Shown here piece by piece: positions 47,424-63,507 of a DNA stretch of 64,000 nucleotides. Source of the DNA: Cytobacillus firmus (GTDB taxonomy: Bacteria; Bacillota; Bacilli; Bacillales; Cytobacillaceae); assembly GCF_023612095.1 (NCBI RefSeq), contig NZ_CP086235.1, positions 2,677,501 through 2,741,500 on the forward strand. The letters run 5' to 3'. Under the pieces are notes generated by a model, which was given only the letters and a program-made list of their open reading frames with translations, made no database searches and had not been told where the DNA came from. The position numbers were made by a program, and so were the translations under genes. Every line of letters starts with the position of its first letter. Position 1 is the stretch's first letter.

Positions 47424-47458
47424 ACGAAAAAACGCCAGGAATTTATCCAAGCGCTCCT
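47424..47458 (-). terminator. Likely terminator of the anthranilate gene cluster
   Basis: On the - strand, AGCGCTTGG-loop-CCTGGCGTT is an imperfect stem followed by TTTTCGTTTTTT. It lies just after the tautomerase gene, the last of the run. Confidence 0.6.
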
Positions 47459-47479
47459 TTATATAATGGGCTAGATTAT

Positions 47480-47692
47480 TTATTGATTTTGGATATTTTT
47501 TGAATCCTCTAATTCAGCTTTTGTGATTCCGCCAACGCCCCAATGCGTCTTAGGCACCGGCTGTATAATAACTCTCACTTGATTAGGATTAACTTCCAGT
47601 GAGCCCACTGCTGCTTCAGTCAAACTGCTTATCAGCTCTTTCAGCTGTGAATCTGACCTTCCATCTAATAAATGAACCTGAATAATTGGCAT
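47480..47692 (-). CDS. 4-oxalocrotonate tautomerase
   Basis: 70 residues beginning MPIIQVHLLDGRS; Pro2, which becomes the N-terminal catalytic proline after Met removal, is conserved. It continues with LISSLTEAAVGSLEVNPNQVRVIIQ, the family core with Arg. It interconverts the enol and keto tautomers of 2-hydroxymuconate/4-oxalocrotonate, linking the deaminase and decarboxylase steps of the meta-cleavage pathway. It is the last gene of the run, 21 bases after the TRAP large permease gene, which fixes its place in the catabolic cluster. Confidence 0.92.
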   Translation of the reverse strand: MPIIQVHLLDGRSDSQLKELISSLTEAAVGSLEVNPNQVRVIIQPVPKTHWGVGGITKAELEDSKNIQNQ

Positions 47693-47713
47693 ATTAACCC
47701 TCCACGCACAAGA

Positions 47714-48994
47714 TCAAAAACCCAGCCAGGCTGGAATCATTAAGGTAGTTTGTTCCCAATAAGTAATGATTAATAACATCGTTATGCCCAGAAAAAGCAT
47801 AGGCATTACTGACTTTACTAATTTCTCAAATTTAACTTCTGCGATTGAAGATACGATAAACAGGCCAGTCCCTACAGGAGGTGTCAGCAATCCAATAGTA
47901 AGGTTAATACAAATAATGACGCCAAAATGAATGGGATCAATCTGAAATCCTGTTGCTAACGGCATTAATACAGGCACTAAAATGATTAGTGCTGCGATTC
48001 CATCCAAAAACATTCCAACTATTAAAAGAAAAAGGTTCACAAGAATTAAAAATACGAATGGATTCTCAGAAATTGACAGCATGGCATTCGCAATCAATTG
48101 AGGTATTTGCTCAAATGCAATAACCCATCCAAATATATTTGCCATGGCGATAAGGAATGTTACTGTTGCAGTTCCAATTACAGTGTTCACGAACACCTCA
48201 GGCAAACATTTCCACTTTAATTCTTTATAAAAGAATAACCCTACAATGAATGCTACCACACTGGCAATTGCGGCAGATTCTGTTGCAGTAAATAAACCGC
48301 TCAATATTCCAAATGTAATGATTATGGGGATGAGCATTGCAGGCAAAACGTTTTTAAAAGCAGCCCATATTTGTGTTACACTAGCTTTCTTACTCCTGGG
48401 GAAATCCTGTTTATATCCTATGTACGCAATTAGAGAGATAAAGCCCAGACCATAAATTAGCCCGGGTATAATCCCAGCCATGAATAAAGCGCCAATTGAT
48501 GTTCCGGATAATGTTCCATAAATAATAAAAATCATGCTTGGCGGAATAATAGGGGCCACTATGGAAGAAGCCAGGGTTAAGGCAGATGAAAATTCACGAT
48601 TGTACCCTTCCCTTTCCATTTCCGGAACCATCACTTTACTCATCATTGCTGCCTGTGCATTGGCAGATCCTAATATGGATGCTAAAAACATATTGGCAAT
48701 GACAGTAACGTAGGCTAATCCCCCTCGGACGTGCCCTACCAGCATTCTTGCAAAAACCACTAAGCGATTCGTAATTCCTCCCCTGTTCATCAATTCGCCT
48801 GTCAGCATGAACAAAGGTATCGCTAATAACCCGAAATTTTCCATTCCAGAGTATAGTCTCTGGGGAGTTGATTCAAGCAGCACATAATTTCCCGTTATTA
48901 TGAAATAAACTATGGTTGTCATTCCAAGGACCAATGAAATGGGGATTCCCATCAGCAGCAAAACAAAAAAAGCGATTACGACCAGAAACATCAT
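47714..48994 (-). CDS. dctM: TRAP transporter large permease (DctM)
   Basis: 426 residues with about 12 membrane helices and the DctM pattern: ASILGSANAQAAMMSKVMVPEMEREGY, SSIVAPIIPPSMIFIIYG and VPVLMPLATGFQIDPIHFGVIICINLTIGLLTPPVGTGLF. It is the substrate channel of a Na+-driven tripartite transporter. It overlaps the small permease gene by ATGA. Since the only genes around are anthranilate catabolism genes, the substrate is probably an aromatic acid or a pathway acid, by inference. Confidence 0.93.
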   Translation of the reverse strand: MMFLVVIAFFVLLLMGIPISLVLGMTTIVYFIITGNYVLLESTPQRLYSGMENFGLLAIPLFMLTGELMNRGGITNRLVVFARMLVGHVRGGLAYVTVIANMFLASILGSANAQAAMMSKVMVPEMEREGYNREFSSALTLASSIVAPIIPPSMIFIIYGTLSGTSIGALFMAGIIPGLIYGLGFISLIAYIGYKQDFPRSKKASVTQIWAAFKNVLPAMLIPIIITFGILSGLFTATESAAIASVVAFIVGLFFYKELKWKCLPEVFVNTVIGTATVTFLIAMANIFGWVIAFEQIPQLIANAMLSISENPFVFLILVNLFLLIVGMFLDGIAALIILVPVLMPLATGFQIDPIHFGVIICINLTIGLLTPPVGTGLFIVSSIAEVKFEKLVKSVMPMLFLGITMLLIITYWEQTTLMIPAWLGF

Positions 48995-49467
48995 TTTGTT
49001 TCACTCCTTTTTGTCACATCCAGGAGATTACTTATCAAATGAATACTTGCAAACAGGAAACCGATTGGCAATATGGAGTAAGGAATCCACATTGGCAGTA
49101 AAATGGCGCTCGATTTTTGAATTCCCACGGATGGGGAAAGAATCCATTTAAAGCAATAAAAAAGAAGAATAGCCATAAAGATGAGCATTAAAATATGAGC
49201 AAGAAAGGAAACCGCTTTGTTAATAGTTCCTGGCAGCATATCCGTTAACAGTGATACAGAAGCTTGAGTCTTATATTTAAGACCCAAGCTTCCTCCTATA
49301 AACGTTATATATATCAGCAGAAAGATTGAAACCTCTCCAGCCCAAAACAACGGAGCATTGGCGGAGCGAAAGATTACAGCTAAAGAAACAATAAGCGCCA
49401 TTGCAAACATGAGGATGATAGCCAGTTTTTTTTCAAGACTGGCTATTATATCACTTAGCTTATTCAC
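48991..49467 (-). CDS. dctQ: TRAP transporter small permease (DctQ)
   Basis: 158 residues with four membrane helices: LAIILMFAMALIVSLAVIF, FLLIYITFIGGSLGLKYK, LIFMAILLFYCFKWIL and LPIGFLFASIHLI. The WAGEVSIFLLIYITFIGGSLGLK stretch is the DctQ signature. It forms the membrane complex with DctM, with which its gene overlaps by 4 bases. Confidence 0.9.
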   Translation of the reverse strand: MNKLSDIIASLEKKLAIILMFAMALIVSLAVIFRSANAPLFWAGEVSIFLLIYITFIGGSLGLKYKTQASVSLLTDMLPGTINKAVSFLAHILMLIFMAILLFYCFKWILSPSVGIQKSSAILLPMWIPYSILPIGFLFASIHLISNLLDVTKRSETK

Positions 49468-49487
49468 ACATTTCCCCCTTTAATATT

Positions 49488-50507
49488 TTACTTGCGGAAT
49501 GTATCAAGAAATTCCTGAATTAAAGGATCAGCTTGTCCAAACTTTTTATCAAATTCTTTAATATAAGGCTGGAACAATGCAGCATCAATTTCGTAAATGT
49601 TCATTCCTTCATCGCTTAAAGTCTTCTTAAAATCTTCCTCCTGCTTGGAACGAGTTTCTGCTGAATAATCAGCAGCCGCTTTAATTGCTTCATCAATGAT
49701 TTTCTGGTCCTCCTCAGGCATTTTGTCATAGGAAGCCTTATTTATCATTGCGACAGCAGGCCAAACCATATGATTTGTAACTGCCCCATATTCCACTACT
49801 TCGTGATACTTGTTTGTAATGGCTGCATCTAAATCCATATCCATGCCATCGATTACACCAGTCTGAATAGCTGCATACACTTCGGGAAGCGGCAGGGATT
49901 CAGGTGAAGCCCCCAAAGATTTATAAAACTCCTGCAATGGAGGACTAGGTGTTACACGAAATTTTAATCCCTTCATATCTTCTGGTTTTAAAACTTCTTT
50001 ATCTTTAAATAACATAACCCGGCTTCCTGCAAATAAGTAATCAAGCCCCTTTATTCCCTGATCGTCCATTGTTGTAAGAATTTTCTTGGCAATCTCTGTA
50101 TCACGGGCTTCATTTGCTTCATTCAGATCCTTAAAAGCGTACGGTGAAAACCATGCAGTGAATGCTTCAGCACGTGAACTTAAATAAGCAGCCGTAATAA
50201 AACCAAAATCAACTGATCCTGCAGAAATTTGCTGAACCATATCAGCCTCTGTTCCAAGCTGGCTTGCGGGATAAATCTCCAATTTCATTCTTCCGCCAGA
50301 ACGGGTCTCAAGCTCTTCTTTGAATTTTTCGGCTGCTTTATGCCACATATGATCGGTTGGTGTAATATGTGCCAGCTTGAAATTATAAGTTGCTCCCTGC
50401 GATGATTTAGAAGCCGTGTCAGAAGAACCCTTTCCGCTGCAAGCTGCAGTAGCTAAAATCAATAAACTTACTATTAATATAAGCCCCATACTTTTTACTT
50501 TCTTCAT
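49488..50507 (-). CDS. dctP: TRAP transporter solute-binding lipoprotein (DctP)
   Basis: 339 residues. A lipoprotein signal (GLILIVSLLILATAACSGK, lipobox with Cys23) then a DctP fold: YNFKLAHITPTDHMWHKAAEKFKEELE, LKFRVTPSPPLQEFYKSLGASPESLPLPEVYAAIQTGVIDGMD. The arginine in LKFRVTPSP normally binds the substrate carboxylate. It is the extracellular receptor of the TRAP system; the carboxylate ligand fits an aromatic or dicarboxylic acid. 20 bases before dctQ. Confidence 0.93.
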   Translation of the reverse strand: MKKVKSMGLILIVSLLILATAACSGKGSSDTASKSSQGATYNFKLAHITPTDHMWHKAAEKFKEELETRSGGRMKLEIYPASQLGTEADMVQQISAGSVDFGFITAAYLSSRAEAFTAWFSPYAFKDLNEANEARDTEIAKKILTTMDDQGIKGLDYLFAGSRVMLFKDKEVLKPEDMKGLKFRVTPSPPLQEFYKSLGASPESLPLPEVYAAIQTGVIDGMDMDLDAAITNKYHEVVEYGAVTNHMVWPAVAMINKASYDKMPEEDQKIIDEAIKAAADYSAETRSKQEEDFKKTLSDEGMNIYEIDAALFQPYIKEFDKKFGQADPLIQEFLDTFRK

Positions 50508-50598
50508 TAATAAACACCCCTTTAAGGATTAATGGAAACAAGTGCGAACACTATCATTTTATTAATCTATATGGAATACTTTAGTAATGTCTATCAGC

Positions 50599-52020
50599 CT
50601 AGCTAATCTCTTTATTGAGGATATCAGCGGATTCTTTCATTCCGACAAGAGCTCCATCCCTTTTTTTCATGAACCAATATGCCAATGACAAGAAAATTAA
50701 CCATGGCACACCGAATTGGAGCATTATCCTAAAATCTGTAAACCATGTAGAAATCATAAGACTCAATAGAAGTACCGCGCCTACTATTGGAAGAAATGGA
50801 TAACCTAACATTCTTACAGGAAGCTTTCGACCACCTGTTTTTTCCCACTTTCTCCTGAAAAACAGATGGGAGATAAAAATCATCAACCAGGTGAATATGG
50901 CACCAAACATGGAAATTCCCATCATAAAGGCATAAGAGGAACCAGGAAGTAAGGCATTTACCCCTGCTGCGATAAAAATACCAAGTGTTGAAATAGCAAG
51001 AGCACTAACTGGGACCCCTTTTCTATTCACTTTAGCTAAAAATGCCGGTGCAAATTTTCCGCGAGATAAAGAATACATCATGCGTGTAGATGCATATAGC
51101 TGACTATTCATGGCTGATAATGCAGCTGTCAAAATGACAAAATTCATGATGCCTGATGCACCAGGTATCTGGAGAATTTCCATGACCTTTACAAACGGAC
51201 TTTCTTCAACCCCTGCGGATTTCCAGGGAACCAGCATCAACATGATACCTATAGTCAACATATAGAAAGTGGATAATCGAAATACTGTTGCTTTTAATGC
51301 TTTAGGAACAGCAACATCAGGATCATTTGCTTCTCCTGCAGTAACAGCTATCATTTCAGTTCCTAAAAAGCTGAAAAGAGATATAAAGATCGCAACCCAC
51401 ATACCCCAAAGGCCAAACGGCATAAAGCCACCACTGTCCACCAAATTACCTGCACCAATATCTGGTTCTGATGATGTTCCAAAAAGGATATAGGATCCAA
51501 GAAGAACAAATCCAACAATGGCACTAATTTTTATCATAGAAAACCAATATTCAAAGGTGGCAAACGTGTTAACACTTGTAGCATTTACATAAATTAAGAT
51601 TGCTGCAAATAATAATATCCAAACCATTCCTGGAACTTGGGGAAACCAGTATTTCATGTAGACGGCAATTGCACTTACCTCAACACCTACAGCCAGCACA
51701 TTTCCAATCCAATAAGAATAGCGAACAAGGAATCCAGCCATTGGGCTAATATATTTTTCAGCAATTGTTCCGAAAGAACCCGAGGTAGGGTGTGCTACAG
51801 ACATTTCAGCCAGGCATCCCATTAAGAGCAGAACAATAAACGCCCCAATCGCGTAGCTTAATAATACACTTGGTCCAGCAGTACTTATGGCAAGTCCGCT
51901 GCCAAGAAAAAGCCCAGTCCCGATCGCACACCCCATGGCGATCATTGTCAGCTGATTGGTTTTTAGGTCTCTTTTTAACCCAGAACTATTAATATTGGTT
52001 TGATTATGATTCTTCTCCAT
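50599..52020 (-). CDS. APC superfamily amino acid permease
   Basis: 473 residues, 12 membrane helices, of the amino acid transporter (AAT) group: TMIAMGCAIGTGLFLGSGLAISTAGPS, GCLAEMSVAHPTSGSFGTIAEKYISP and FLGTEMIAVTAGEANDPDVAVPKALKATVFR. It probably imports an amino acid; within an anthranilate cluster the candidates are tryptophan, kynurenine or anthranilate itself, all unproven. The start is the ATG with AAAGGA about 8 bases upstream; two earlier ATGs overlap that site. It lies on the same strand between the hydratase gene and the TRAP genes. Confidence 0.88.
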   Translation of the reverse strand: MEKNHNQTNINSSGLKRDLKTNQLTMIAMGCAIGTGLFLGSGLAISTAGPSVLLSYAIGAFIVLLLMGCLAEMSVAHPTSGSFGTIAEKYISPMAGFLVRYSYWIGNVLAVGVEVSAIAVYMKYWFPQVPGMVWILLFAAILIYVNATSVNTFATFEYWFSMIKISAIVGFVLLGSYILFGTSSEPDIGAGNLVDSGGFMPFGLWGMWVAIFISLFSFLGTEMIAVTAGEANDPDVAVPKALKATVFRLSTFYMLTIGIMLMLVPWKSAGVEESPFVKVMEILQIPGASGIMNFVILTAALSAMNSQLYASTRMMYSLSRGKFAPAFLAKVNRKGVPVSALAISTLGIFIAAGVNALLPGSSYAFMMGISMFGAIFTWLMIFISHLFFRRKWEKTGGRKLPVRMLGYPFLPIVGAVLLLSLMISTWFTDFRIMLQFGVPWLIFLSLAYWFMKKRDGALVGMKESADILNKEIS

Positions 52021-52160
52021 ATCCATCATCCTTTACCATTGCCAAAATTCCCTTGGAACCAGCAAAGGATACAGTAACACTGACTGTATCTTCTGCTGAT
52101 ATCCCACGGATTAAATAGGAAAAATTTAAACAAAATGAATTCGAGGGACATCCTATTTCA

Positions 52161-52958
52161 CTATGCACCTGATTTACAGGAAATAGAGACTGAACCCAAT
52201 TCCGCAAACTGAACGGAAACAGCGTCACCTGGTTTAAAGGCAATGGCTTCGGATATTGCCCCGCTTAAAATAATATCTCCTTTCTTGATTCCCCTTCCGG
52301 ATTCTCCAAGTTTATTTACCGCCCAAGCTGCAGAGGCTGCGGGATGACCTAATACTGCAGCACTCGATCCTGTTTGTGCAACTTCACCGTTCTTTGACAT
52401 CACCATGCCAAGCTGACCTAAATCTACGGAATCCGGCTTCATCCATTTACTGCCCAGAACAAAACGTGAGGACGAACAGTTATCTGCTATCACGTCTGCT
52501 AAAGTAAACTTGAAGTCCAAATACCGGCTGTCAATAATTTCGATTGCCGGAGCAACATATTTCGTTACACTTAGTACATCTTCTGCAGTAACGCTTGTTC
52601 CTTGCAGATCTTCACCAATCATAAAAGCAATTTCAGGTTCAGCCTTTGGATGAATGAATTGATTGAAATCGATTGGCTCCCATTCAAAGCCAAGCATGTC
52701 GTCAGTGAGAATTCCATAAATCGCTTCATGTACACCCATCATTTGCTGTTTAGCCTTGCTGGTTAATCCGAGTTTTAAACCCACTCGCCGCGAACCATCT
52801 TTTTCTCTTCTTTCAATCAGCTTTTCCTGAATCAAATAAGCTTCTTCAAAGCTTAATTCAGGTAGTCGATCCGTTATTTTCACCACTTCCCGCTGTTCTT
52901 TTTCAGCTGAATATAAATATTCCACAATTTCCATGTCTGCACCACTGGTTAATGTCAT
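52161..52958 (-). CDS. 2-keto-4-pentenoate hydratase / 4-oxalocrotonate decarboxylase family
   Basis: 265 residues of the fumarylacetoacetate-hydrolase-like family. Typical blocks: GLKLGLTSKAKQQMMGVHEAIYGILTDDM, KAEPEIAFMIGEDLQG (metal Glu), IEIIDSRYLDFKF and NCSSSRFVLGSKW, then LSGAISEAIAFKPGDAVSVQF. One of two paralogues here; together they cover decarboxylation of 4-oxalocrotonate to 2-oxopent-4-enoate and its hydration. Which does which cannot be settled by sight. The start is the ATG with GGAGGTG 5 bases upstream, two bases after the aldolase gene. Confidence 0.9.
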   Translation of the reverse strand: MTLTSGADMEIVEYLYSAEKEQREVVKITDRLPELSFEEAYLIQEKLIERREKDGSRRVGLKLGLTSKAKQQMMGVHEAIYGILTDDMLGFEWEPIDFNQFIHPKAEPEIAFMIGEDLQGTSVTAEDVLSVTKYVAPAIEIIDSRYLDFKFTLADVIADNCSSSRFVLGSKWMKPDSVDLGQLGMVMSKNGEVAQTGSSAAVLGHPAASAAWAVNKLGESGRGIKKGDIILSGAISEAIAFKPGDAVSVQFAELGSVSISCKSGA

Positions 52959-52960
52959 TA

Positions 52961-54001
52961 TTACACCTCCAAGATTCGTGCTTGTGCCAGCTCTGAGGCA
53001 ACATCTAGAATCATATCCTCCTGGCCGCCCACCACTTTTCGTTTTCCTAACTCTATTAAAATATCTCTGGGATCCAACCCAAAACGCTTCCCTGCCCGTT
53101 CTGCGTGCAGCAGAAAACTTGAATATACTCCTGCATAGCCTAATACCAGGCTGCACTTATTAATTTCCTGCGGTTTCGGAACTAACGGACCTACCGTGTT
53201 TTCTGCAATATCCATCATTTTATAGAGATCAATACCGGCATTTATACCCATCCTGTCTAAAACCGCCAGCAATACCTCAGTTTGTGTATTTCCTGCGCCT
53301 GCTCCCAGACAGCGGACACTTCCATCGATCCTGGTAGCCCCTTCTTCAATGGCCGCTAATGTATTTGCAACAGCAACAGATAAATTATTATGGCCATGAA
53401 ACCCTACTTCAATATTCAAGGAGTCGCGAAGTGCAGCAATTCTTTCACGAACTTGATGCGGCAAAAGGGCTCCTGCCGAATCGGTTACATATACAGCTTG
53501 TGCTCCATAGCTTTCCATTAACTTTGCCTGTTCAACTAATTTCTCAACTGGTGCCATATGGGCCATCATCAGAAAGCCTAATGTTTCCATTCCCAATTCT
53601 CGTGCGGCGCTAATATGCTGTGCAGATACATCAGCTTCCGTTACATGAGTGGCCACTCTAACTAATTCTGCTCCTATAGAATGAGCTTGCTTTAATTCTT
53701 GACAGGTTCCAATCCCTGGAATTAGCAGCACAGCAATTTTCGCCTGTTTGCATTCATCAACTGCAGCCTCAATGAGTTTCATTTCATTGACACGTGACCT
53801 TCCGTACTGAAGGGTAGAACCACCTAATCCGTCTCCATGACTGACTTCGATATAGTGCATCCCGGCATCGTCCAATTCTTTGACAACTCGACGGACTTGT
53901 TCTTCATTATATTGATGTGCAACGACATGGCTTCCATCCCGCAAACACACTTCTGTTATTTTAATAGGCTTGTCACTTTTTCGAATCAACTGTGTCACCA
54001 T
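52961..54001 (-). CDS. dmpG: 4-hydroxy-2-oxovalerate aldolase
   Basis: 346 residues. A TIM-barrel aldolase of the DmpG/MhpE type: KITEVCLRDGSHVVAHQYNEEQV at residues 13-35 (catalytic Arg-Asp) and the metal pair in EVGFHGHNNLSVAVANT. The C-terminal helical part (YKMMDIAENTVGPLVPKPQEI) is the communication domain that channels acetaldehyde to the dehydrogenase. It cleaves 4-hydroxy-2-oxovalerate into pyruvate and acetaldehyde. Its gene follows the acetaldehyde dehydrogenase gene by 9 bases, as usual for this enzyme pair. Confidence 0.94.
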   Translation of the reverse strand: MVTQLIRKSDKPIKITEVCLRDGSHVVAHQYNEEQVRRVVKELDDAGMHYIEVSHGDGLGGSTLQYGRSRVNEMKLIEAAVDECKQAKIAVLLIPGIGTCQELKQAHSIGAELVRVATHVTEADVSAQHISAARELGMETLGFLMMAHMAPVEKLVEQAKLMESYGAQAVYVTDSAGALLPHQVRERIAALRDSLNIEVGFHGHNNLSVAVANTLAAIEEGATRIDGSVRCLGAGAGNTQTEVLLAVLDRMGINAGIDLYKMMDIAENTVGPLVPKPQEINKCSLVLGYAGVYSSFLLHAERAGKRFGLDPRDILIELGKRKVVGGQEDMILDVASELAQARILEV

Positions 54002-54010
54002 GCCTTTCTA

Positions 54011-54904
54011 TCAACCACTTATTACATTCTGAACCAGTAAATTTTTGGCGAAGTTTTCTGCCACACGAGTTGCGGAAGCTGTCATAATGTCGAGATTGCC
54101 TGCGTAAATAGGAAAATAATCACCAGCACCCTCTACTTCTATAAATACGGTCACACGACTTTCATCAAATAACGGCTTTTGCTTCAAACGATATCCAGGT
54201 ACATATTCCTTAACCGTCTCGACCATTTCATATATCGATTTAAGGATTGCATCCTGATCCATATTTTTAACTTCACAGTAAATGGTATCTCGCATCAGGA
54301 TAGGCGGTTCCGCTGGATTTAGAATAATGATGGCTTTTCCTTCATCAGCCCCTCCAACTTCCTCAATCCCTCTTTTGGTAGTGATCGTAAATTCATCGAT
54401 ATTTGCCCGCGTCCCCGGTCCCGCACTTTTGCTTGAAATAGTTGCAACGATTTCAGCATAAGCTACATCAGCAACACAATTTATTGCATGAACAATAGGA
54501 ATGGTTGCTTGTCCTCCGCAAGTTATCAGGTTTACATTTAATGCTTCATTATGAATAGGTGCTTCTACAGCAGGACTGACAAATGGACCTTTTGCAGCGG
54601 GAGTCAAATCAATTGCCAGTTTCCCTAATTCTTCTAATACTTCCGCATGTCTAATATGTGCTTTCGCTGACGTTGCATCAAAAACGATATCAGCCAAATC
54701 CGGATTTTCTTTTAAGGCTTGAATACCATTTGAAAAAATTGGATAACCCAAATCTTTTGCACGTTTTAACCCTTCAGACTCTGGATCAATCCCGATCATT
54801 GCTGTGAGTTCAATAACGTCACTTCTTTCCAGCTTATACATAAGATCGGTGCCTATATTGCCAGAACCGATGATTGCTGCTTTGATTTTAGCCAAAATAT
54901 TCAC
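54011..54904 (-). CDS. dmpF: Acetaldehyde dehydrogenase (acylating)
   Basis: 297 residues. The NAD site [18 protein letters not shown] is at residues 8-25, and the catalytic Cys is in [17 protein letters not shown], with [21 protein letters not shown] following. It turns acetaldehyde and CoA into acetyl-CoA in a channelling complex with the DmpG-type aldolase encoded next. Length and motifs are standard for the DmpF/MhpF group. Confidence 0.94.
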
Positions 54905-54910
54905 CCCTCA

Positions 54911-55690
54911 TTATTCAAATGTGACTGAAACAGTACCCAAGCGTCCGAAATGGGCGGACACAGTATCACCTGCTTCTGCTGTTATCGCTCCGCTTAGAGC
55001 TCCTGGAAGAATGAGTTCCCCGGCTTTTAAGGTAATGTCAAATTCATGGAGCTTATTCGCAAGCCATGCAATAGCCTGAGCTGGGTGGCCAAGTGCTGCA
55101 GCACCTGATCCAGTAGAGATCAACTCGCCATTTTTATACAAGCTCATCCCGATGCTGCGCAAATCCATTCCGTCTATTTCGGTTAATTGCTTCCCGACTA
55201 CAACTTTTGCCGAGGAGCCATTATCTGCAACTGTATCAATCAGCTGAATTTTCCAATCGGCTATCCTGCTATCAATAATCTCAAGAGTTGGAGTTATGTA
55301 CTTTGTAGCCATCATTACATCCAGCCAGGTTACATTTGGCCCCTTCAGATCTTCACCAAGGATAAATCCGATTTCAGCCTCCACTTTGGGACTAAGCAGA
55401 TCATTCATCTTAACCTTTCCATCACTCATTACCTTCATATCATCAAGCAAATGTCCGTAATCAGGCTCATCTACACCAAGCATTTGCTGCATAGCCACAC
55501 TTGTCAGTCCAACCTTTTTGCCAATGATCCTGCGGCCTGAGCTAATTTTCTGTTTTATCACTTCCAGTTGGATATGGTATGCATCCCTTGCATTCAGGTT
55601 TGAATATTTCTGAGTAAGCGGAGTCATTGCCTGTTTCGTTAATTCAGCTTCCAGTAAATCTTCTACAATTTCATTTATTAGCAGATTCAT
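54911..55690 (-). CDS. 2-keto-4-pentenoate hydratase / 4-oxalocrotonate decarboxylase family (second paralogue)
   Basis: 259 residues, same family as the protein at 52161: GKKVGLTSVAMQQMLGVDEPDYGHLLDDM, KVEAEIGFILGEDLKGPNV, LEIIDSRIADWKIQLIDTVADNGSSAKVV and LSGAITAEAGDTVSAHF. It shares with DmpE/DmpH enzymes the Glu metal ligands. Together with its paralogue it supplies decarboxylase and hydratase. An internal hairpin lies in the 61-base gap upstream. Confidence 0.9.
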   Translation of the reverse strand: MNLLINEIVEDLLEAELTKQAMTPLTQKYSNLNARDAYHIQLEVIKQKISSGRRIIGKKVGLTSVAMQQMLGVDEPDYGHLLDDMKVMSDGKVKMNDLLSPKVEAEIGFILGEDLKGPNVTWLDVMMATKYITPTLEIIDSRIADWKIQLIDTVADNGSSAKVVVGKQLTEIDGMDLRSIGMSLYKNGELISTGSGAAALGHPAQAIAWLANKLHEFDITLKAGELILPGALSGAITAEAGDTVSAHFGRLGTVSVTFE

Positions 55691-55724
55691 ATACTCACTC
55701 TCTCTTATAATCGTTAATTAAGGA

Positions 55725-55756
55725 AAAGAAGAGTGCGGGTTAAGCACTCTTTTATA
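55725..55756 (-). terminator. Hairpin between the aldehyde dehydrogenase and the lower-pathway genes
   Basis: On the - strand, AAGAGTGC-TTAACCC-GCACTCTT followed by CTTTTCC, starting at the dehydrogenase stop codon. It may attenuate transcription into the lower pathway genes. Confidence 0.6.
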
Positions 55757-57212
55757 GTTTCATGGTGATGGTTTTCGCTTCCGTATAAAATTCGAAACTA
55801 TGGCGGCCTCCCTCACGGCCAATTCCACTTGCCTTTGAACCTCCAAAAGGTGTTCTTAGATCTCTGTAATACCAGCAATTAATCCAAAATAACCCTGAAT
55901 TAATGCTTGATGCTACCCGATGGGCACGGCGGAGGTCGTTTGTCCAAACAACACCTGCAAGACCATAGATAGAATCATTTGCAATTTGGACAGCTTCTTC
56001 TTCTGTTTTAAATGGAATGACAGATAAAACCGGACCAAATATTTCTTCCTGAGCTACCTTCATTTTATTATCCACATCATAAAGGACAGTTGGCTCATAA
56101 AAATTGCCTTCAACGAGCGAGGTAATTTTCTTACCGCCGATGGCAAGCTTAGCACCTTCGGCTATTCCCGCTTGAACATACTCATCCACTGTTTCAAGAT
56201 GTCCTTTTGAAACCAATGCCCCCATGTCCGTATCCTCACGAAGCGGGTCCCCCACCTTGATTTTTTTAACGGCTTGGACAAACTTGTCGAGGAAAAGATC
56301 ATAAATGCTTTCTTGTAAAAGCAAACGGGATCCTGCTAAACAAATTTCACCCTGGTTTCTAAAAATAGCATCAATTGAACCTTCAATGGCTTCATCCAGG
56401 TTTGCATCTTCAAACACAATATTTGCAGACTTGCCTCCAAGCTCCAGCGAAACTGGGATTAATTGCGAGGCAGCATTTTTCATGACCGTTCTGCCGGTTG
56501 TGCTATCACCTACAAACGAAATGCGCCGTACAGATGGATGTTTGGTCATTGCTGTACCGGCTGTCCCTCCTGGACCTGTAATTATATTAAGCACACCTGG
56601 AGGAAGCCCGGCATCATTGGCAATTTCTCCGAGCATTACTGCACTTAATGGTGTATAGGAAGCAGGTTTCACAACGACTGTATTTCCTGCTGCCATTGCT
56701 GCAGATGCCTTCCATGTCATTTGCATAAAAGGCAGGTTCCAGGGAATAATTAAACTTGTTACACCGGCTGGGGCGTATTTGGAGTAAGACATATATTTTG
56801 TCTGATCATAATGTTCATGGTGAATGTAGTTTGCCATTTCGGCAAAGAACTTTAAGTTTGCTGCCGCTCTCGGAATATCAAACCCCCGGCTCTCCTTGAT
56901 CGGTTTTCCCACATCCAGTGTTTCAACACGAGCTATTTCGTCAGCTCGATCCATTATAAGGTCAGACATCCTGCATAAGATCTCAGATCTTTCAGCAACC
57001 GGCATTTTACTCCAGGTTCCGCTATCAAAAGTACGCTGAGCTGCTTCAATTGCGTGATTGACATCTTCCTCATTTGCCTTGGCAACAGATGCAAGTTTTT
57101 GGTTCGTGGCAGGATCAAGGGTGTCAAAGCTCTCTCCTGAAACTGAGTCACGGTATTCTCCATTAATAAAGAGTTTTGCGTCCTTAATAACCTTCTGCTG
57201 TAATTGCGTCAT
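55752..57212 (-). CDS. Aldehyde dehydrogenase, probable 2-aminomuconate semialdehyde dehydrogenase
   Basis: 486 residues of the NAD-dependent ALDH superfamily: IIPWNLPFMQMTWK (cofactor), SLELGGKSANIVF (catalytic Glu), NQGEICLAGSRLL (catalytic Cys) and the C-terminal PFGGSKASGIGREGG. Its position between the dioxygenase/ACMSD/deaminase genes and the lower pathway points to oxidation of 2-aminomuconate 6-semialdehyde to 2-aminomuconate. The close relative 2-hydroxymuconic semialdehyde dehydrogenase has similar motifs, so the exact substrate is inferred. Confidence 0.9.
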   Translation of the reverse strand: MTQLQQKVIKDAKLFINGEYRDSVSGESFDTLDPATNQKLASVAKANEEDVNHAIEAAQRTFDSGTWSKMPVAERSEILCRMSDLIMDRADEIARVETLDVGKPIKESRGFDIPRAAANLKFFAEMANYIHHEHYDQTKYMSYSKYAPAGVTSLIIPWNLPFMQMTWKASAAMAAGNTVVVKPASYTPLSAVMLGEIANDAGLPPGVLNIITGPGGTAGTAMTKHPSVRRISFVGDSTTGRTVMKNAASQLIPVSLELGGKSANIVFEDANLDEAIEGSIDAIFRNQGEICLAGSRLLLQESIYDLFLDKFVQAVKKIKVGDPLREDTDMGALVSKGHLETVDEYVQAGIAEGAKLAIGGKKITSLVEGNFYEPTVLYDVDNKMKVAQEEIFGPVLSVIPFKTEEEAVQIANDSIYGLAGVVWTNDLRRAHRVASSINSGLFWINCWYYRDLRTPFGGSKASGIGREGGRHSFEFYTEAKTITMKL

Positions 57213-57213
57213 T

Positions 57214-57687
57214 TCATATCGCCTCCTGCCCCTCTATTTCAAGCACCATCTCAACTTCCACGGCATTATTGTTTGGCAGTTGAGCCATACCGACAGCTGA
57301 CCTTCCGTGCTGGCCTTTTTCTCCAAAAATTTGAACAAGTAAATCTGAAGCGCCATTCATGACCTTGGGCTGATCGGTAAAATCATCAGCACTATTCACA
57401 AAGCCAAGAATTTTTACGATTCTTTTTACTTTGTTAAGGTCGCCAACCTCTTGTTTTACAACAGCCAATAGGTTTAACATACATTGTCTGGCCGCTTCAT
57501 ACCCAACCTCTATCGGGAGATCTTCTCCTAACCGCCCCCGGTATTCATCTGTCCCTTGCCCAGACGTAAATAGAAGGTTTCCTGTTCGGACACAGCTGAC
57601 ATAGTTTCCTGCGGATGAACGGACTGGCGGCAGCTTGATCGCTAGCTCCTCTAATTTTTGTTCAGGACTTACCGTTCCATTAACCAT
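57214..57687 (-). CDS. RidA family protein, probable 2-aminomuconate deaminase
   Basis: 157 residues with the RidA/YjgF fold. Recognisable pieces: NLLFTSGQGTDEYRGRLGEDLPIEVGYEAARQCMLNLLAVV and FGEKGQHGRSAVGMAQLPNNNAVEVEMVLEI (Arg substrate ligand). In 3-hydroxyanthranilate pathways a RidA-type enzyme deaminates 2-aminomuconate to 4-oxalocrotonate. The start is the ATG five codons in from KVGS of the upstream gene; GGGAG is 9 bases before it. Confidence 0.87.
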   Translation of the reverse strand: MVNGTVSPEQKLEELAIKLPPVRSSAGNYVSCVRTGNLLFTSGQGTDEYRGRLGEDLPIEVGYEAARQCMLNLLAVVKQEVGDLNKVKRIVKILGFVNSADDFTDQPKVMNGASDLLVQIFGEKGQHGRSAVGMAQLPNNNAVEVEMVLEIEGQEAI

Positions 57688-57691
57688 ATTT

Positions 57692-58702
57692 TCAACTCCC
57701 AACCTTAGCAGGCACATTTAAAAATCGAAGAGCATTTTTTCCCAGCATAGCTTCTGTTTGTTCAGCTGTAAGATCAAGGGTTTCATCTATTACTTTACCA
57801 GGCCGTATTTCCCTTAATAGAAATGGATAATCTGAACCCATAATGATTTGCTCATGCCCAAAATTTTGCAGCAAATAGTTTAAATTAATAGGATCATTTA
57901 CCAAGGAATCAAAATAAAACTTCTTCGCATAATAACTAGGCGGTTTCTCCAGCAGCCTTAAATGAGGCCAAACCTTCCAGCCTTGATCAAGACGCGGCAA
58001 TAAGTATGGTAAAGAACCTCCGCCGTGTGCAAAACAAATTCTTAAACGCGGGAATTTTTCAATCACTCCACCTAAAATTAAACTTGCACCTGCAAGTGCA
58101 GTTTCACTTGGCATTCCAACAGTGTACATCAGATTATGCCTTGGCATTCTCTCTTTCCCCAAGGTTTCCCAAGGGTGTATAAAAAGCGGCACATCCCACT
58201 TCTCAGCCATCTCGAAGAATTCGATTAAAGATGGATCATCCAGATTGTTACCGTTTACATTAGTGCCAATCTCAATACCCCTTAAGCCTAATTCATGGAT
58301 GCATCGATCCATTTCACGAATCGCAGCCTGCACATCCTGTAAAGGGACTGTACCTAAACCGATAAATTTAGAAGGGTTTTGACTTACAGTCTCTGCAATA
58401 AAATCATTCTGTATTCGAGCAAGAATAGATGCCTCTTCAGCAGGCGCCCAGTAAGAAAAGGTTACGGGAATAGGAGAGAGCACTTGAATGTCCACATGTT
58501 CTCTTTCCATGTCATGTATTCTCTTTTCAGGACTCCATACTTGATCTGTCACTTCACGAAACACCTTGCCACCTACCATGATATTTGCACCGCAGGCACA
58601 TGTTCGCTCAAGAGCTGGCCACTTATCTCCCATTAAATTTTTTGTTAATTCAGTGAAATTCTCAGGGATTATATGAGTATGAAAGTCTACTCGCATTTCC
58701 AT
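57692..58702 (-). CDS. 2-amino-3-carboxymuconate-6-semialdehyde decarboxylase (ACMSD)
   Basis: 336 residues of the amidohydrolase superfamily. Zinc ligands: FHTHIIPE (His8, His10), PLFIHPWETLG, CFAHGGGSLPYLL and IIMGSDYPFLL (Asp). The conserved HGGG and the RADQGWKV-like region follow the ACMSD subfamily rather than hydrolases. It removes CO2 from the product of 3-hydroxyanthranilate dioxygenase. Its start overlaps the dioxygenase gene by 16 bases, so the pair is translationally coupled. A start at the next Met (58696) is equally possible. Confidence 0.92.
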   Translation of the reverse strand: MEMRVDFHTHIIPENFTELTKNLMGDKWPALERTCACGANIMVGGKVFREVTDQVWSPEKRIHDMEREHVDIQVLSPIPVTFSYWAPAEEASILARIQNDFIAETVSQNPSKFIGLGTVPLQDVQAAIREMDRCIHELGLRGIEIGTNVNGNNLDDPSLIEFFEMAEKWDVPLFIHPWETLGKERMPRHNLMYTVGMPSETALAGASLILGGVIEKFPRLRICFAHGGGSLPYLLPRLDQGWKVWPHLRLLEKPPSYYAKKFYFDSLVNDPINLNYLLQNFGHEQIIMGSDYPFLLREIRPGKVIDETLDLTAEQTEAMLGKNALRFLNVPAKVGS

Positions 58703-59232
58703 TCACTCGCTTCCAGCGCCATGACATGCCCGCAATGTTCGCACGTTCTAAGGTCCATACTGCTGTTAAATTCAGCAATTGCTTCTTTGACCTGTACTTC
58801 AATATTCGTCAGCTGAATTTTGACTCTGTGGAGCTCATGGTCACATTCATCACAGAACCAAACGAAATCCTCCAACTCTCCTTTTGCACGATTGCGTTCA
58901 ATAACCAATCCAATCGTATCTGCAACACGATGTGGAGAATGCGGAACATTTGCTGGAAGAAGGAACATTTCTCCTTCTTTAACTTCAATAACTTCACGCT
59001 TTCCTTCATCATTAATGACCTCTACATAACAGCTGCCCTTGATTTGATAGAAGACTTCTTCTGATGGATCCACATGGAAATCACGTCTTTTATTTGGGCC
59101 GCCAAGCAGCATCACCATTAATTCAGCATCCTTCCAAATGACCTTATTATTGACTGGCGGCTTTAATTGGTCCTTATTTTCCTCAATAAACTGCATTAGA
59201 TTTATAGGCATAAATTTGCTTTTCACTTTCAT
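58687..59232 (-). CDS. nbaC: 3-hydroxyanthranilate 3,4-dioxygenase
   Basis: 181 residues, a cupin. Ferrous ligands: HVDPSEEVFYQ (His53, Glu59) and PHSPHR (His98). A C-terminal rubredoxin-like iron site is formed by CDEC (127/130) and CEHC (164/167), the hallmark of bacterial 3-HAO. The Arg residues that hold the substrate (RRDFHV, SPHRV) are present. It opens the ring of 3-hydroxyanthranilate to 2-amino-3-carboxymuconate semialdehyde. The start is the ATG with AAGGGAG 9 bases upstream. Confidence 0.95.
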   Translation of the reverse strand: MKVKSKFMPINLMQFIEENKDQLKPPVNNKVIWKDAELMVMLLGGPNKRRDFHVDPSEEVFYQIKGSCYVEVINDEGKREVIEVKEGEMFLLPANVPHSPHRVADTIGLVIERNRAKGELEDFVWFCDECDHELHRVKIQLTNIEVQVKEAIAEFNSSMDLRTCEHCGHVMALEASEWKCE

Positions 59233-59253
59233 AATCAATTGCTCCCTTCAATT

Positions 59254-59811
59254 TTATTCATTGACCTGCGCATATTCTTTTTTTAATGTTTTTTGCATAT
59301 GAACCACTTCATCAGCAAGATGTGAAATTCTTTGCAGAACGTCTGGATCGCTGAGTTCATTCTTTTCATTAAAATGATCTCTATTTGCGTAAACGTAGCT
59401 TGGTGCAACAAAAGCACGGAAGAAACCTGCTATTGGCTTAAGCTGATTCTCAATAACAAGGTAGTGCTGGTAGGTACCCCCATTTGCAGTAAACCCCATA
59501 ACTTTGTTCCTAAGATCATTGGGATTGATTAAGTCAAAGAGGTTTTTTAAGACGCCCGGAATCGACCCCTGAAAAATTGGAGTACCAATAATGTAAAAGT
59601 CAGCAGAAGAAACCATTTCAATTACCTTCTTTGTATCTTCTGAATAAGTATTAGGATCACGGCCATCACAAAATTGAACATCATAATCCATCATGTCTAA
59701 ATATTCAACTTCGATATCCGGATATTTCAGCTCCACTTCTTCTAGAACTTTTTTTACGACAATCCCTGTTTTGGCACCTATGATTGTGCCGGATATACCC
59801 AACAATTTCAT
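59254..59811 (-). CDS. NAD(P)H-dependent flavin reductase of the anthranilate hydroxylase
   Basis: 185 residues, flavodoxin-like NADPH-dependent FMN reductase family: LLGISGTIIGAKTG at residues 3-16 (phosphate loop), ADFYIIGTPIFQGSIPGVLKNLFDLI and MGFTANGG. It should supply reduced flavin to the HpaB-type monooxygenase, matching the FAD reductase component described in the Geobacillus thermodenitrificans system. It lies between the FAD synthetase and dioxygenase genes in a tight run. Confidence 0.9.
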   Translation of the reverse strand: MKLLGISGTIIGAKTGIVVKKVLEEVELKYPDIEVEYLDMMDYDVQFCDGRDPNTYSEDTKKVIEMVSSADFYIIGTPIFQGSIPGVLKNLFDLINPNDLRNKVMGFTANGGTYQHYLVIENQLKPIAGFFRAFVAPSYVYANRDHFNEKNELSDPDVLQRISHLADEVVHMQKTLKKEYAQVNE

Positions 59812-59826
59812 TTTTTGTTCCCCTTT

Positions 59827-60363
59827 CTATTCTCCCGCTGGCCAGCCGAGAAGAGAGTGGGAACTCTGGACCTCACCTCTTGACAGCAATTGCCGAATCC
59901 TTGTAGATGAGATGCGATTCCCGCTTGAACAGCAGACTGGTTCTATGACCCGTACAGTAAAATACTTTTGTAATAGATGAATATCTCCGTCACGATTCCT
60001 TCCAAAACGGAAATCTTCCCCGACGATAATTTCAAGCGGGTTTAATTTTGATAAGGTTTCTATAAATTCCTCAGCACTTGCTTGAGCATACACATGATCA
60101 AAACGAGCAATTACCACTTGATCAACACCTAGCACTTCTAATTTCGGTAATTTTTCTTGGATCGAACTCAGCATGTATGCTCCTTGAAAATAAACACGCG
60201 GCGGCGGGTCAAAGGTATAGACAAGGCTGGGTGCATTTAAAAATTTTCCTCTTTTAACAGCTTGCTTTATTACCTCCTGGTGGCCACGATGCACGCCGTC
60301 AAAGGCACCCACAGCAATGACAGAACAAGGCAATGCTAGAGAAGAATAGATATGTGTTTCCAC
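59827..60363 (-). CDS. FAD synthetase (FMN adenylyltransferase domain only)
   Basis: 178 residues covering just the nucleotidyltransferase half of RibF: AVGAFDGVHRGHQEVI (residues 16-31), FDPPPRVYF, IVGEDFRFGRNRDG and ISSTRIRQLLSRG. The C-terminal riboflavin kinase domain (PTAN motif, about 130 residues) is absent, and the ORF ends cleanly. It makes FAD from FMN and ATP. Its place between the flavin reductase and hydroxylase genes indicates a dedicated FAD supply for the monooxygenase. Confidence 0.9.
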   Translation of the reverse strand: METHIYSSLALPCSVIAVGAFDGVHRGHQEVIKQAVKRGKFLNAPSLVYTFDPPPRVYFQGAYMLSSIQEKLPKLEVLGVDQVVIARFDHVYAQASAEEFIETLSKLNPLEIIVGEDFRFGRNRDGDIHLLQKYFTVRVIEPVCCSSGNRISSTRIRQLLSRGEVQSSHSLLGWPAGE

Positions 60364-60390
60364 TTGGCCCCCCCTCCCTATCTTTTCGAA

Positions 60391-61866
60391 CTAGTTAGCT
60401 GCAACTTCTTTATCCAGCGTACATACCTTTAATGCTTCATCCACCATATCGTGAGTATGGAGGCGTTTATAATTATTAAAAAAGATTCCTCTTTTGCGAA
60501 TTGGATCTCCAGTATAATATCTTTCATACTGCAGCAGCCTTTGGCCAAAAGCCTCACCGCATAAATCCCATGCAAGTTTGAAAATGCTCACTCTTTCAAG
60601 GGAAGAAACACCTGCTCTGCCAACATAGTAATTCTCAATATCTTCTCTCAATGCACTTTCAAAGTCGGCTCCAGTAGGGGACATGAGCAGCCCGCCTGCT
60701 CCAACTATTTGCATCACTTCGATTGCCCTTGGGTACATTTTCGGCAGTAAACCCCTTATCGTTTCCAAAGGTACATAATCAGGCATCGCCTCGCCATTTT
60801 CTGTTATGGAGTAGTTATACTCTGCTACATCCAGCAAAGCTCTAATGGATTCAAGTGATTGAATAATTTCGGCCAGATCATTTTGCACATTTAAATACCC
60901 ATCTACCCCAATTGCATCTGCTAGCTTCATAGCTACTTCTGTAGCAAATTGCAATTTTATCAGTCCTCTTACCCCCGTTTGATGTGCAGGCTGCTGTCCT
61001 GCACCTGTCAGAGGATACAGCTTGTTCGCAGCTTCGATATTGTTATATAAAAACACTCGATCCCATGGAACGACTACGTCATCAAAAACAAGCAGCGCAT
61101 CCATTTCTTCAAACCGGGAAGCAAGCGGATGATCAAAGACGGAACGTGTTCCATCCTGCATGGCTTCTCGGCAAATAATACGAATACCTGGTGTATCAAG
61201 TGGAATAGCAAAAGCTAATGCATATTTTTCATCTCCAGGACTAAATCCAGGGAAGGAATAAATGATGACCTCCTCTGTAATTGGTGCAAGTGTTGCAAGC
61301 ATCTTAGCTCCTCGGACCACTAATCCTTCCGGAGTTTCCTTTACAGCTCCCAGATGAGTATAAGTGTCCTTCTGTTCATGTGAAGATTTGCTTCTATCAT
61401 TCTGAGGATTTATGATTGCGTGTGTCAGAAATAAATCATTATCACGTACATATTTATAATAATTCCGTACATTTTCTGCCCAGGATTTATCATACTTCTC
61501 AAAAAACCAGGCATTATGATAAAACGACGTTAAGACAACATTTAAAAAGTCAGGTGTTCTGCCCATCAATCCGTAGGTAGCTTTGGCAAAAGCTTCAAAA
61601 ATTGCTCTCCTTTTCTTTAAATCTTCAAAGCTTTTCGGCACGAGGAAAGCATTATTCACTCTCTCTCCGGTCTCCTCACAAATATGGGTAATCTTATCCA
61701 TATATTCAGGTTCATGCTGCATATCATATAATTTGGCAATTTCAAGTATTGGCTGTTTAAATACAGGCTCTGTAAATACATCTTCTACTTTTTTACCAGC
61801 CATCCAAACCTCGGGTTTACGCTTTTTAATAGCTTCGATATATTGAGCACCAGTTCTGATTCCCAT
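60391..61866 (-). CDS. Anthranilate 3-monooxygenase (HpaB family, FADH2-dependent)
   Basis: 491 residues of the 4-hydroxyphenylacetate 3-hydroxylase (HpaB) large-component family: [62 protein letters not shown] and [28 protein letters not shown]. It uses reduced FAD and O2 to hydroxylate an aromatic ring. Its place with flavin reductase, FAD synthetase and 3-hydroxyanthranilate dioxygenase genes points to anthranilate to 3-hydroxyanthranilate, as shown for the homologous system in G. thermodenitrificans. First gene of the catabolic run; its promoter is in the 223-base gap before the divergent Crp-type gene. Confidence 0.9.
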
Positions 61867-61959
61867 ATCTTACCTCCAACTTTTTGTTATTTTCAGTTTG
61901 AATTGTAATATTAAATTTTTTAAGTAACTGTAGTCTATTTAACATAAAATTAATTTAAA

Positions 61960-61972: not shown

Positions 61973-62089
61973 TAAAATAGTCTAAAATCCCATAGTTTTT
62001 TTCTACAATTTCCCCTATGATAATAGTAATTTCTGAGACAAAAATTTTCGCTGATGATTACACACACATTTTCATTAGGAGGGAATAAC

Positions 62090-62722
62090 TTGGTTACTGT
62101 CTATGAACATGTTTTTCATTGGGAGGATTACTTAAAGTTGGGTAAAAGGAGGTTTATCAGAAAGAAAGAACATATTTATACTCAGGGAACAAATGGGGAT
62201 GGGTTTTATTTTCTTCATAAAGGTCTTGTCAAAATTGTTACTGTAACAGCAACTGAGAAAGAAAGAGTCTTAAATATTGTGATCCCTAATCAGCTTTTAG
62301 GAGTTCAATCATTAGACCAAAAAAAACATTTTACGACTGCTGTGGCGGTAAAAGATTCCGTTGTCTATCACTTCTCATCTGAGGAATTCAGAGATTTCAT
62401 GGTTCAATATCCGGATTTAAATCAGCTTTTTTCAAAAAGTGTCATACACAAAATGAAGATTCTTTTAGATCGGATAAATATGAATGCGCTTACATCCGAA
62501 CAGAGGGTTGCATTGCTTCTTCAGAATGTTTGTGATGAATTCAAAAATTACGAAATACCACTATCACAACAGGATCTCTCCAGTTGTACTGGTTTAACTA
62601 GAATAACAGTGTATAAGGTTTTAAAAGAATGGAAAGAGAAGGGCATTATAGACACAGACAATAAAAAATATTACATAAAAAAACCAGATTTCCTAAGAAA
62701 CCTAGTCAAGCAGTCATATTAA
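62090..62722 (+). CDS. Crp/Fnr family regulator (cluster regulator candidate 1)
   Basis: 210 residues. A cyclic-nucleotide-binding-type beta barrel (IYTQGTNGDGFYFLHKGLVKIV, about 30-55), a dimer helix, then a C-terminal HTH (LSQQDLSSCTGLTRITVYKVLKEWKEKGII). No N-terminal cysteine cluster, so not an FNR iron-sulfur sensor; key cAMP-contact residues are not conserved. The TTG start follows AGGAGGG by 6 bases, better than the upstream ATG at 62054. It is divergent from the hydroxylase gene and is the best candidate for its regulator. Stop codon overlaps the end of the second regulator gene by 4 bases. Confidence 0.88.
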   Translation: MVTVYEHVFHWEDYLKLGKRRFIRKKEHIYTQGTNGDGFYFLHKGLVKIVTVTATEKERVLNIVIPNQLLGVQSLDQKKHFTTAVAVKDSVVYHFSSEEFRDFMVQYPDLNQLFSKSVIHKMKILLDRINMNALTSEQRVALLLQNVCDEFKNYEIPLSQQDLSSCTGLTRITVYKVLKEWKEKGIIDTDNKKYYIKKPDFLRNLVKQSY

Positions 62723-63446: not shown

Positions 63447-63467
63447 CACTTCATCTAGCGGGATAAA

Positions 63468-63500: not shown

Positions 63501-63507
63501 AACGAAA

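What the first reader, a model, noticed from the sequence alone, without database searches (positions are those of the whole stretch)
47480..61866. Complete single-strand anthranilate-to-acetyl-CoA meta-cleavage cluster
Every enzyme from an HpaB-type hydroxylase (with private flavin reductase and FAD synthetase) through 3-HAO, ACMSD, dehydrogenase, RidA deaminase, tautomerase, two decarboxylase/hydratase paralogues, aldolase and acylating dehydrogenase is encoded in about 14.4 kb on one strand. The set matches the anthranilate pathway described in Geobacillus thermodenitrificans NG80-2. New here are an APC permease and a complete TRAP transporter embedded in the run, with no kynurenine genes.
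Basis: partly seen in the sequence, partly recalled or inferred. Interest (0 to 1): 0.75.

Follow-up and report, generated by a model that had tools for sequence, protein, structure and literature searches.

The report
Anthranilate degradation cluster with its regulator
This stretch of the chromosome of a Bacillus relative carries a known set of genes for breaking down anthranilate (a tryptophan breakdown product) to acetyl-CoA, next to a switch gene and DNA switch site, apparently not described before, that seem to turn the pathway on in a number of related bacteria.

Summary
Sixteen genes, 61866 down to 47480 on the minus strand, encode a predicted route from anthranilate via 3-hydroxyanthranilate to acetyl-CoA, plus an APC permease and a DctPQM TRAP transporter. 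It is the pathway type described for Geobacillus thermodenitrificans NG80-2, so mostly ordinary. The TRAP system is not peculiar to this genome (30 of 67 full-length related loci), and although the window has no kynurenine genes, a kynU-kynB-kynA operon lies about 1.13 Mb away. Its 20-base form occurs once in this 4.38 Mb genome. In 56 of 74 distinct copies in this and related loci a TATAAT-like -10 box begins exactly 29 nt after the site's centre, the -41.5 geometry of class II Crp/Fnr activation. In ten loci a second copy with the same spacing precedes the TRAP genes. I infer a dedicated anthranilate regulon: activator, importer, enzymes. The regulator's ligand, transporter substrates and all enzyme activities are untested.

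The parts
60391..61866 (-). HpaB-type FADH2-utilising hydroxylase, predicted anthranilate 3-monooxygenase (491 aa)
   Evidence: HpaB_N/HpaB Pfam; 75% identical to G. thermodenitrificans P0057; TIGR02309 481.5 bits vs cut-off 480.2, P0057 itself 462.7
59827..60363 (-). Stand-alone FMN adenylyltransferase (FAD synthetase), 178 aa, no flavokinase domain found
   Evidence: PF06574 and CTP_transf_like only; genome also has a FAD_syn match in a 319-aa open frame; G. thermodenitrificans homologue P0202 is 179 aa
59254..59811 (-). Flavin reductase (FMN_red family)
58687..59238 (-). 3-hydroxyanthranilate 3,4-dioxygenase
   Evidence: TIGR03037 242.4 bits vs cut-off 145.95; aligned with 1yfu (residue roles recalled)
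57692..58702 (-). 2-amino-3-carboxymuconate-6-semialdehyde decarboxylase (ACMSD)
   Evidence: best solved relatives are chains named ACMSD, E 1.3e-86 (2wm1) and 4.2e-62 (2hbv)
57214..57717 (-). Rid/YjgF family protein, predicted 2-aminomuconate deaminase
   Evidence: PF14588, PF01042; role by position
55752..57212 (-). Aldehyde dehydrogenase, predicted 2-aminomuconate 6-semialdehyde dehydrogenase
   Evidence: PF00171; solved 2-aminomuconate semialdehyde dehydrogenases among the 60 best relatives shown but not first
54911..55690 (-). 2-oxopent-4-enoate hydratase-like (DmpE-type)
   Evidence: TIGR03220 best, 285.9 bits, below cut-off 408.8
54011..54904 (-). Acetaldehyde dehydrogenase (acetylating)
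   Evidence: TIGR03215 463.6 vs cut-off 282.25
52961..54001 (-). 4-hydroxy-2-oxovalerate aldolase
   Evidence: TIGR03217 540.1 vs cut-off 286
52161..52958 (-). 4-oxalocrotonate decarboxylase-like (DmpH-type)
   Evidence: TIGR03218 best, 291.1 bits, below cut-off 350.55; start ATG read
50599..52029 (-). APC amino-acid permease, predicted for tryptophan or kynurenine
   Evidence: PF00324; in full-length related loci 13 of 17 with APC also carry kynU, 1 of 50 without APC do
49488..50507 (-). TRAP solute-binding protein DctP, predicted for anthranilate
   Evidence: PF03480; best solved relative 4paf by sequence and Foldseek rank 1
48991..49467 (-). TRAP small permease DctQ
   Evidence: PF04290
47714..48994 (-). 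TRAP large permease DctM
   Evidence: TIGR00786 416.9 vs cut-off 268.45
47480..47692 (-). 4-oxalocrotonate/2-hydroxymuconate tautomerase family, 70 aa, Pro after initiator Met
   Evidence: PF01361 52.3 bits vs cut-off 22; TIGR00013 63 vs 56.9, best equivalog PRK01964.1 85.3 just under its 86
61926..61945 (-). Predicted Crp/Fnr operator, ATGTTAAATAGACTACAGTT
   Evidence: only match of the 20-base pattern in the 4.38 Mb genome; conserved upstream of the hydroxylase in relatives
61902..61907 (-). Predicted -10 box TACAAT, starting 29 nt from operator centre
   Evidence: 56 of 74 distinct sites have at least 5 of 6 TATAAT matches at this offset, at most 12 of 74 at any other offset from 8 to 51
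62054..62722 (+). Crp/Fnr family regulator 1, divergent from the hydroxylase; predicted activator
   Evidence: PF00027 and PF13545; co-occurs with the operator
62719..63333 (-). Crp/Fnr family regulator 2, 30% identical to regulator 1

Best explanation
A chromosomal anthranilate catabolic regulon of the NG80-2 type. Anthranilate, imported (probably by the TRAP system) or made inside the cell from tryptophan or kynurenine by the separate kynUBA operon, is hydroxylated to 3-hydroxyanthranilate by the FADH2-dependent HpaB-type enzyme, served by its own flavin reductase and a stand-alone FMN adenylyltransferase. 3-HAO opens the ring, ACMSD decarboxylates, the aldehyde dehydrogenase gives 2-aminomuconate, the Rid protein deaminates it to 4-oxalocrotonate, and tautomerase, decarboxylase, hydratase, aldolase and acetylating dehydrogenase yield pyruvate and acetyl-CoA. 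Transcription is inferred to be switched on by the divergent Crp/Fnr-type regulator binding at -41.5 (class II). Shown here: gene content, conserved order, operator conservation and fixed spacing to a -10-like box. Inferred: every enzyme activity, the transporter substrates, the regulator's action and its ligand.
For: Families. Hydroxylase clade beside 3-HAO/ACMSD in 25 of 27 loci versus 0 of 13 other HpaB homologues. ACMSD and 3-HAO align with solved enzymes through their active sites. kynU, kynB, kynA over curated cut-offs in the same genome. No HpaD over cut-off and no match to the AntA family in the genome. Operator within 400 bp upstream of the hydroxylase in 28 of 33 loci with regulator 1 and 3 of 32 without; in a second, partly overlapping set, 17 of 17 and 2 of 10; -10 at 29 nt in 56 of 74 sites; second copy with the same spacing before dctP in ten loci. 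TRAP in 30 of 56 full-length loci with the hydroxylase and 0 of 11 without.
Against: No activity, growth or expression data. The hydratase and decarboxylase are below their NCBIfam cut-offs and the dehydrogenase is below HpaE's; the Rid role rests on position. NCBIfam's cut-off would name the hydroxylase 4-hydroxyphenylacetate 3-monooxygenase, by 1.3 bits, and one review lists the NG80-2 enzyme among 4HPA3Hs (PMC10816480, passages). Two of the 27 hydroxylase loci (L188, L195) have no 3-HAO in the stretch fetched. In the window and in L069 the TRAP genes lack their own operator, as in L085. Five loci with regulator 1 lack a strict operator match upstream of the hydroxylase (L094, L098, L099, L103, L112). 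In 18 of 74 sites the -10 match is absent; these are mainly second, more distant copies. Operator counts are not corrected for relatedness, and the pattern was read from 24 of the same upstream regions. The crp1 structure model was too poor to use.
Confidence: 0.8

Rival explanations
1. The HpaB-type enzyme really acts on 4-hydroxyphenylacetate or another phenol, and the 3-HAO module is fed only by 3-hydroxyanthranilate from elsewhere.
For: NCBIfam HpaB-1 score just over its cut-off; the best-scoring solved relatives are 4-HPA hydroxylases; a review lists the NG80-2 enzyme under 4HPA3H (PMC10816480, passages).
Against: The G. thermodenitrificans relative, at 75% identity, scores lower on HpaB-1 (462.7); the clade sits beside 3-HAO/ACMSD in 25 of 27 loci versus 0 of 13 controls; no HpaD over cut-off in the genome.
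Confidence: 0.07
2. The operator belongs to a general signal (oxygen, redox, catabolite state) read by a Crp/Fnr protein, not to an anthranilate-specific switch.
For: Crp/Fnr proteins sense many signals (general knowledge); regulator 1's solved relatives are diverse and weak; two paralogues are present.
Against: The 20-base site occurs once in the genome, beside the regulator gene; in the 65 relatives scored, 15 of the 16 sites away from the hydroxylase start lie before dctP or in the stretch between regulator 1 and the hydroxylase or TRAP genes, the other (L123) elsewhere in its locus. A global regulator should have many sites. This does not exclude a local regulator reading a general signal.
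Confidence: 0.25
3. The TRAP system imports something other than anthranilate (a pathway intermediate, another carboxylate).
For: TRAP binding proteins take many carboxylates (PMC3610893, passages); no ligand data here. In L194 kynU and kynB, and in L199 kynB and part of an APC gene, lie just beyond the TRAP genes, so TRAP is not confined to loci without kynurenine genes.
Against: TRAP occurs with the hydroxylase (30 of 56 full-length loci) and not without it (0 of 11); it shares the operator in ten loci; closest solved relative is 4paf, recalled as binding hydroxybenzoates.
Confidence: 0.3

Closest known systems
Anthranilate degradation cluster of Geobacillus thermodenitrificans NG80-2 (Liu et al. 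2010; original not read, described in passages of PMC4539516)
   Same: FAD-dependent hydroxylase with FAD synthetase and reductase genes in the same cluster, then meta-cleavage through 3-hydroxyanthranilate; hydroxylase 75% and FAD synthetase 57% identical to G. thermodenitrificans proteins P0057 and P0202.
   Different: Here an APC permease, a TRAP system and two Crp/Fnr regulators adjoin; no G. thermodenitrificans DctP among the 120 best listed of 711. The NG80-2 neighbourhood itself was not available to compare.
2-nitrobenzoate lower pathway (nba genes) of Pseudomonas fluorescens KU-7 (recalled)
   Same: Same lower route from 3-hydroxyanthranilate.
   Different: Different upper pathway and host group.
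CprK and other class II Crp/Fnr activators (recalled; CprK chains 2h6c and 3e5u appear among weak matches)
   Same: Crp/Fnr family, palindromic operator, predicted -41.5 position.
   Different: Ligand unknown here; sequence similarity weak and not specific to CprK.
TarPQM aromatic-acid TRAP transporter of Rhodopseudomonas palustris (PMC3610893, passages read)
   Same: TRAP system at an aromatic catabolic locus; binding protein with a conserved arginine for a carboxylate.
   Different: TarP binds cinnamic acids; substrate here untested.

Membership tests
[quoted passage not shown]
   75% identity to P0057, 57% to P0202; reductase family present
[quoted passage not shown]
   TIGR03037 over cut-off; ACMSD E 1.3e-86 aligned through the active site
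[quoted passage not shown]
   Right superfamilies, all below or without equivalog cut-offs
[quoted passage not shown]
   TIGR03217 and TIGR03215 over cut-off
[quoted passage not shown]
   needs assay
4-hydroxyphenylacetate 3-monooxygenase (HpaB) | NCBIfam HpaB-1 equivalog score over cut-off | tested here: met
   481.5 vs 480.2 bits: marginal
4-hydroxyphenylacetate 3-monooxygenase (HpaB) | Partner HpaD ring-cleavage enzyme in the genome | tested here: not met
   best 20.4 bits against cut-off 321.4
Crp/Fnr class II activator | cNMP-binding-like domain plus Crp-type HTH | tested here: met
   PF00027, PF13545 over cut-off
Crp/Fnr class II activator | Operator centred at -41.5, fixed distance to -10 | tested here: inconclusive
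   -10-like box at 29 nt in 56 of 74 sites fits; transcription start and binding not measured
Crp/Fnr class II activator | Identity of effector ligand | not testable with these tools
   needs binding assay; crp1 model pLDDT 55.5
DctPQM TRAP transporter | All three subunits encoded side by side | tested here: met
DctPQM TRAP transporter | Aromatic carboxylate as substrate | tested here: inconclusive
   genomic association, shared operator, closest solved relative 4paf; ligand of 4paf is recalled

The most novel reading that the evidence does not exclude
A dedicated Crp/Fnr-type regulator senses anthranilate or 3-hydroxyanthranilate (not cAMP, oxygen or an iron-sulphur cluster) and, as a class II activator at ATGTWA-N6-TWACAT-like sites, switches on the degradation operon and, in many Bacillota, a high-affinity TRAP importer for anthranilate: a complete scavenging regulon. 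My searches of the open-access library found no paper describing it (listings).
Probability: 0.4. Interest if true: 0.5.

Novelty: new member of a known kind. Interest (0 to 1): 0.4.

Why it matters
The enzymes are known, so the cluster alone adds distribution data. The regulator-operator prediction adds something testable: it gives a control circuit to a pathway whose regulation I found no paper on in the library searched, supports assigning an unassigned TRAP family to anthranilate in Bacillus relatives, and supplies a candidate anthranilate-responsive promoter. It also flags likely misnaming of anthranilate hydroxylases as 4-hydroxyphenylacetate hydroxylases.

Tried and rejected
Rejected: TRAP as a novelty of this genome; a host without kynurenine genes; the kyn operon as part of the same regulon: the 18-kb stretch around it has one match at 2 mismatches, 16960-16979, not upstream of kynU and no more than shuffles give, and kynU has its own divergent TetR-like gene (TetR read from the sequence by eye). 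TRAP and kynU as mutually exclusive: 0 of 30 full-length TRAP loci show kynU, but in many of them TRAP lies near the end of the 10-kb flank so that what follows is unseen, and L194, fetched further, has kynU and kynB beside TRAP; I do not use this absence. A crp1 structure prediction gave mean pLDDT 55.5 and was not searched. No RNA family in 44000-64000. The promoter and terminator scan gave counts close to shuffles (promoters 38 vs mean 41.8; terminators 14 vs 12.4) and was not used.

Limits. The NG80-2 neighbourhood could not be obtained: the class sample of 398 genomes held no protein identical to P0057 (best 88%), and named relatives kept were 80 of 149. Taking P0057 and P0202 as NG80-2 proteins rests on the organism name plus a contig length of 3,550,319 that I recall as the NG80-2 chromosome. 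Literature: 9 searches of an open-access library; Liu et al. 2010 not read, only described in PMC4539516; PMC4539516, PMC6165268, PMC10816480, PMC6362003 and PMC3610893 were seen as passages only, the others as listings; one search lists an anthranilate-inducible system of Pseudomonas (PMC7778614), not read. Fisher values ignore relatedness and are not quoted; some species appear more than once (two Brevibacillus panacihumi, several Sutcliffiella horikoshii); 13 of 80 loci with short flanks were left out there, and presence was set by identity and coverage thresholds of my choosing. In one search, 65 of 80 loci had a resolvable hydroxylase start; 15 were left out. Of the 27 loci, 12 lie on contigs of the same length as contigs, so are taken as the same; among the other 15, those with regulator 1 have the site in 9 of 9. 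The 13 control homologues were chosen by me from the listed matches, not at random. The crp1 alignment held 13 sequences because my ORF finder missed others and I dropped one fragment. Tetratests of kynurenine 3-monooxygenase in the genome were not made.


Full report
Observation. Sixteen genes run from 61866 down to 47480 on the minus strand with operon-like spacing. GC content of the cluster (0.412) matches the rest of the window (0.404).

Substrate of the hydroxylase. Its score passes the NCBIfam HpaB-1 cut-off by 1.3 bits; the G. thermodenitrificans relative P0057 (75% identical) scores below that cut-off. In 398 genomes of the class, the listed matches to P0057 fall into two groups, 68% identity and above, and 46% and below. 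I fetched neighbourhoods of 27 of the first group and 13 of the second: 25 of 27 carry 3-HAO and ACMSD, 0 of 13 do. The exceptions are L188 and L195. The genome has no HpaD over cut-off, no other HpaB_N match and no match to the AntA-type anthranilate dioxygenase family. 3-HAO and ACMSD align with solved enzymes across their active sites; which residues bind metal and substrate is recalled. Together this makes anthranilate the likely substrate.

Flavin supply. In the FAD synthetase only the adenylyltransferase domain was found, no flavokinase domain; the genome has a second FAD_syn match in a 319-aa open frame. The G. thermodenitrificans homologue is also short, 179 aa, so the wording 'riboflavin kinase/FMN adenylyltransferase' used in the review (PMC4539516) does not fit its domain content, if P0202 is that protein. 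By my thresholds 33 of 67 full-length related loci have the gene.

Where anthranilate comes from. The same chromosome holds kynU, kynB and kynA, all over curated cut-offs, with a divergent TetR-like gene and a sodium-dependent transporter gene, about 1.13 Mb away. In relatives the APC gene goes with kynU: 13 of 17 full-length loci with APC have kynU, 1 of 50 without. I infer that the APC permease brings in tryptophan or kynurenine. TRAP goes with the hydroxylase: 30 of 56 full-length loci with it, 0 of 11 without. None of those 30 shows kynU, but the flanks often end near TRAP; in L194, fetched further, kynU and kynB do follow the TRAP genes, and in L199 kynB and part of an APC gene.

How common. 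3-HAO is over cut-off in 41 of 193 genomes of the family and gives strong matches (over 160 bits) in 4 of 36 of the genus, this one included, so the cluster is patchy. Two of the 80 named loci, L147 (Siminovitchia terrae) and L148 (Bacillus norwichensis), have both APC and TRAP, in another arrangement.

Regulation. Regulator 1 is found in 29 of 56 full-length loci with the hydroxylase and 0 of 11 without. By eye neither shows the N-terminal cysteine cluster of Fnr, and regulator 1 lacks the glutamate and arginine of the cAMP pocket (both motifs recalled). In the gap lies ATGTTAAATAGACTACAGTT (61945-61926, minus strand). The pattern AYGTTAAN5YTACANTT occurs once in the 4,383,751-base genome and zero times when read backwards. 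The shorter pattern AYGTTAAN5YTACA lies within 400 bp upstream of the hydroxylase in 28 of 33 loci with regulator 1 and 3 of 32 without, and in 17 of 17 and 2 of 10 of a second, partly overlapping set. Of the two exceptions there, L182 has the TRAP genes upstream of the hydroxylase, so regulator 1 may lie beyond the fetched end, and L178 is a 16.9-kb contig with little left upstream. Of 74 distinct sites, 56 have 5 or 6 of 6 matches to TATAAT starting exactly 29 nt from the centre; the next best offset has 12. If TATAAT spans -12 to -7, the centre is at about -41.5, the class II activator position (recalled). The 18 sites without such a box are mainly second copies further upstream.

Verdict. 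The enzymes form a known pathway in a further host. The likely advance is the regulator-operator-importer link, which is predicted from conservation and geometry only.

Noticed in passing
   Followed up: yes
L174:5228-10496 (own genome 3863227-3868495): kynU-kynB-kynA operon with a divergent TetR-like gene and a sodium-dependent transporter gene; the region upstream of kynU holds the palindrome TTGACA-TAG-TGTCAA.
   Followed up: partly
L106 and L111, upstream of 3-HAO: 3-HAO clusters lacking the hydroxylase have an aromatic-acid MFS transporter gene immediately upstream of 3-HAO, suggesting another way of feeding the same lower pathway.
   Followed up: partly
59827-60363: Single-domain FAD synthetase paralogue in a catabolic operon; the G. 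thermodenitrificans homologue is also short although a source names it riboflavin kinase/FMN adenylyltransferase.
   Followed up: partly
52030-52160: 131-nt gap between the decarboxylase and APC genes holds an inverted repeat (GATACAGT...ACTGTATC) without a clear T run; possible attenuator.
   Followed up: no
L188 and L195: Hydroxylase of the anthranilate clade without 3-HAO in the stretch fetched; L195 still has regulators and the operator.
   Followed up: no
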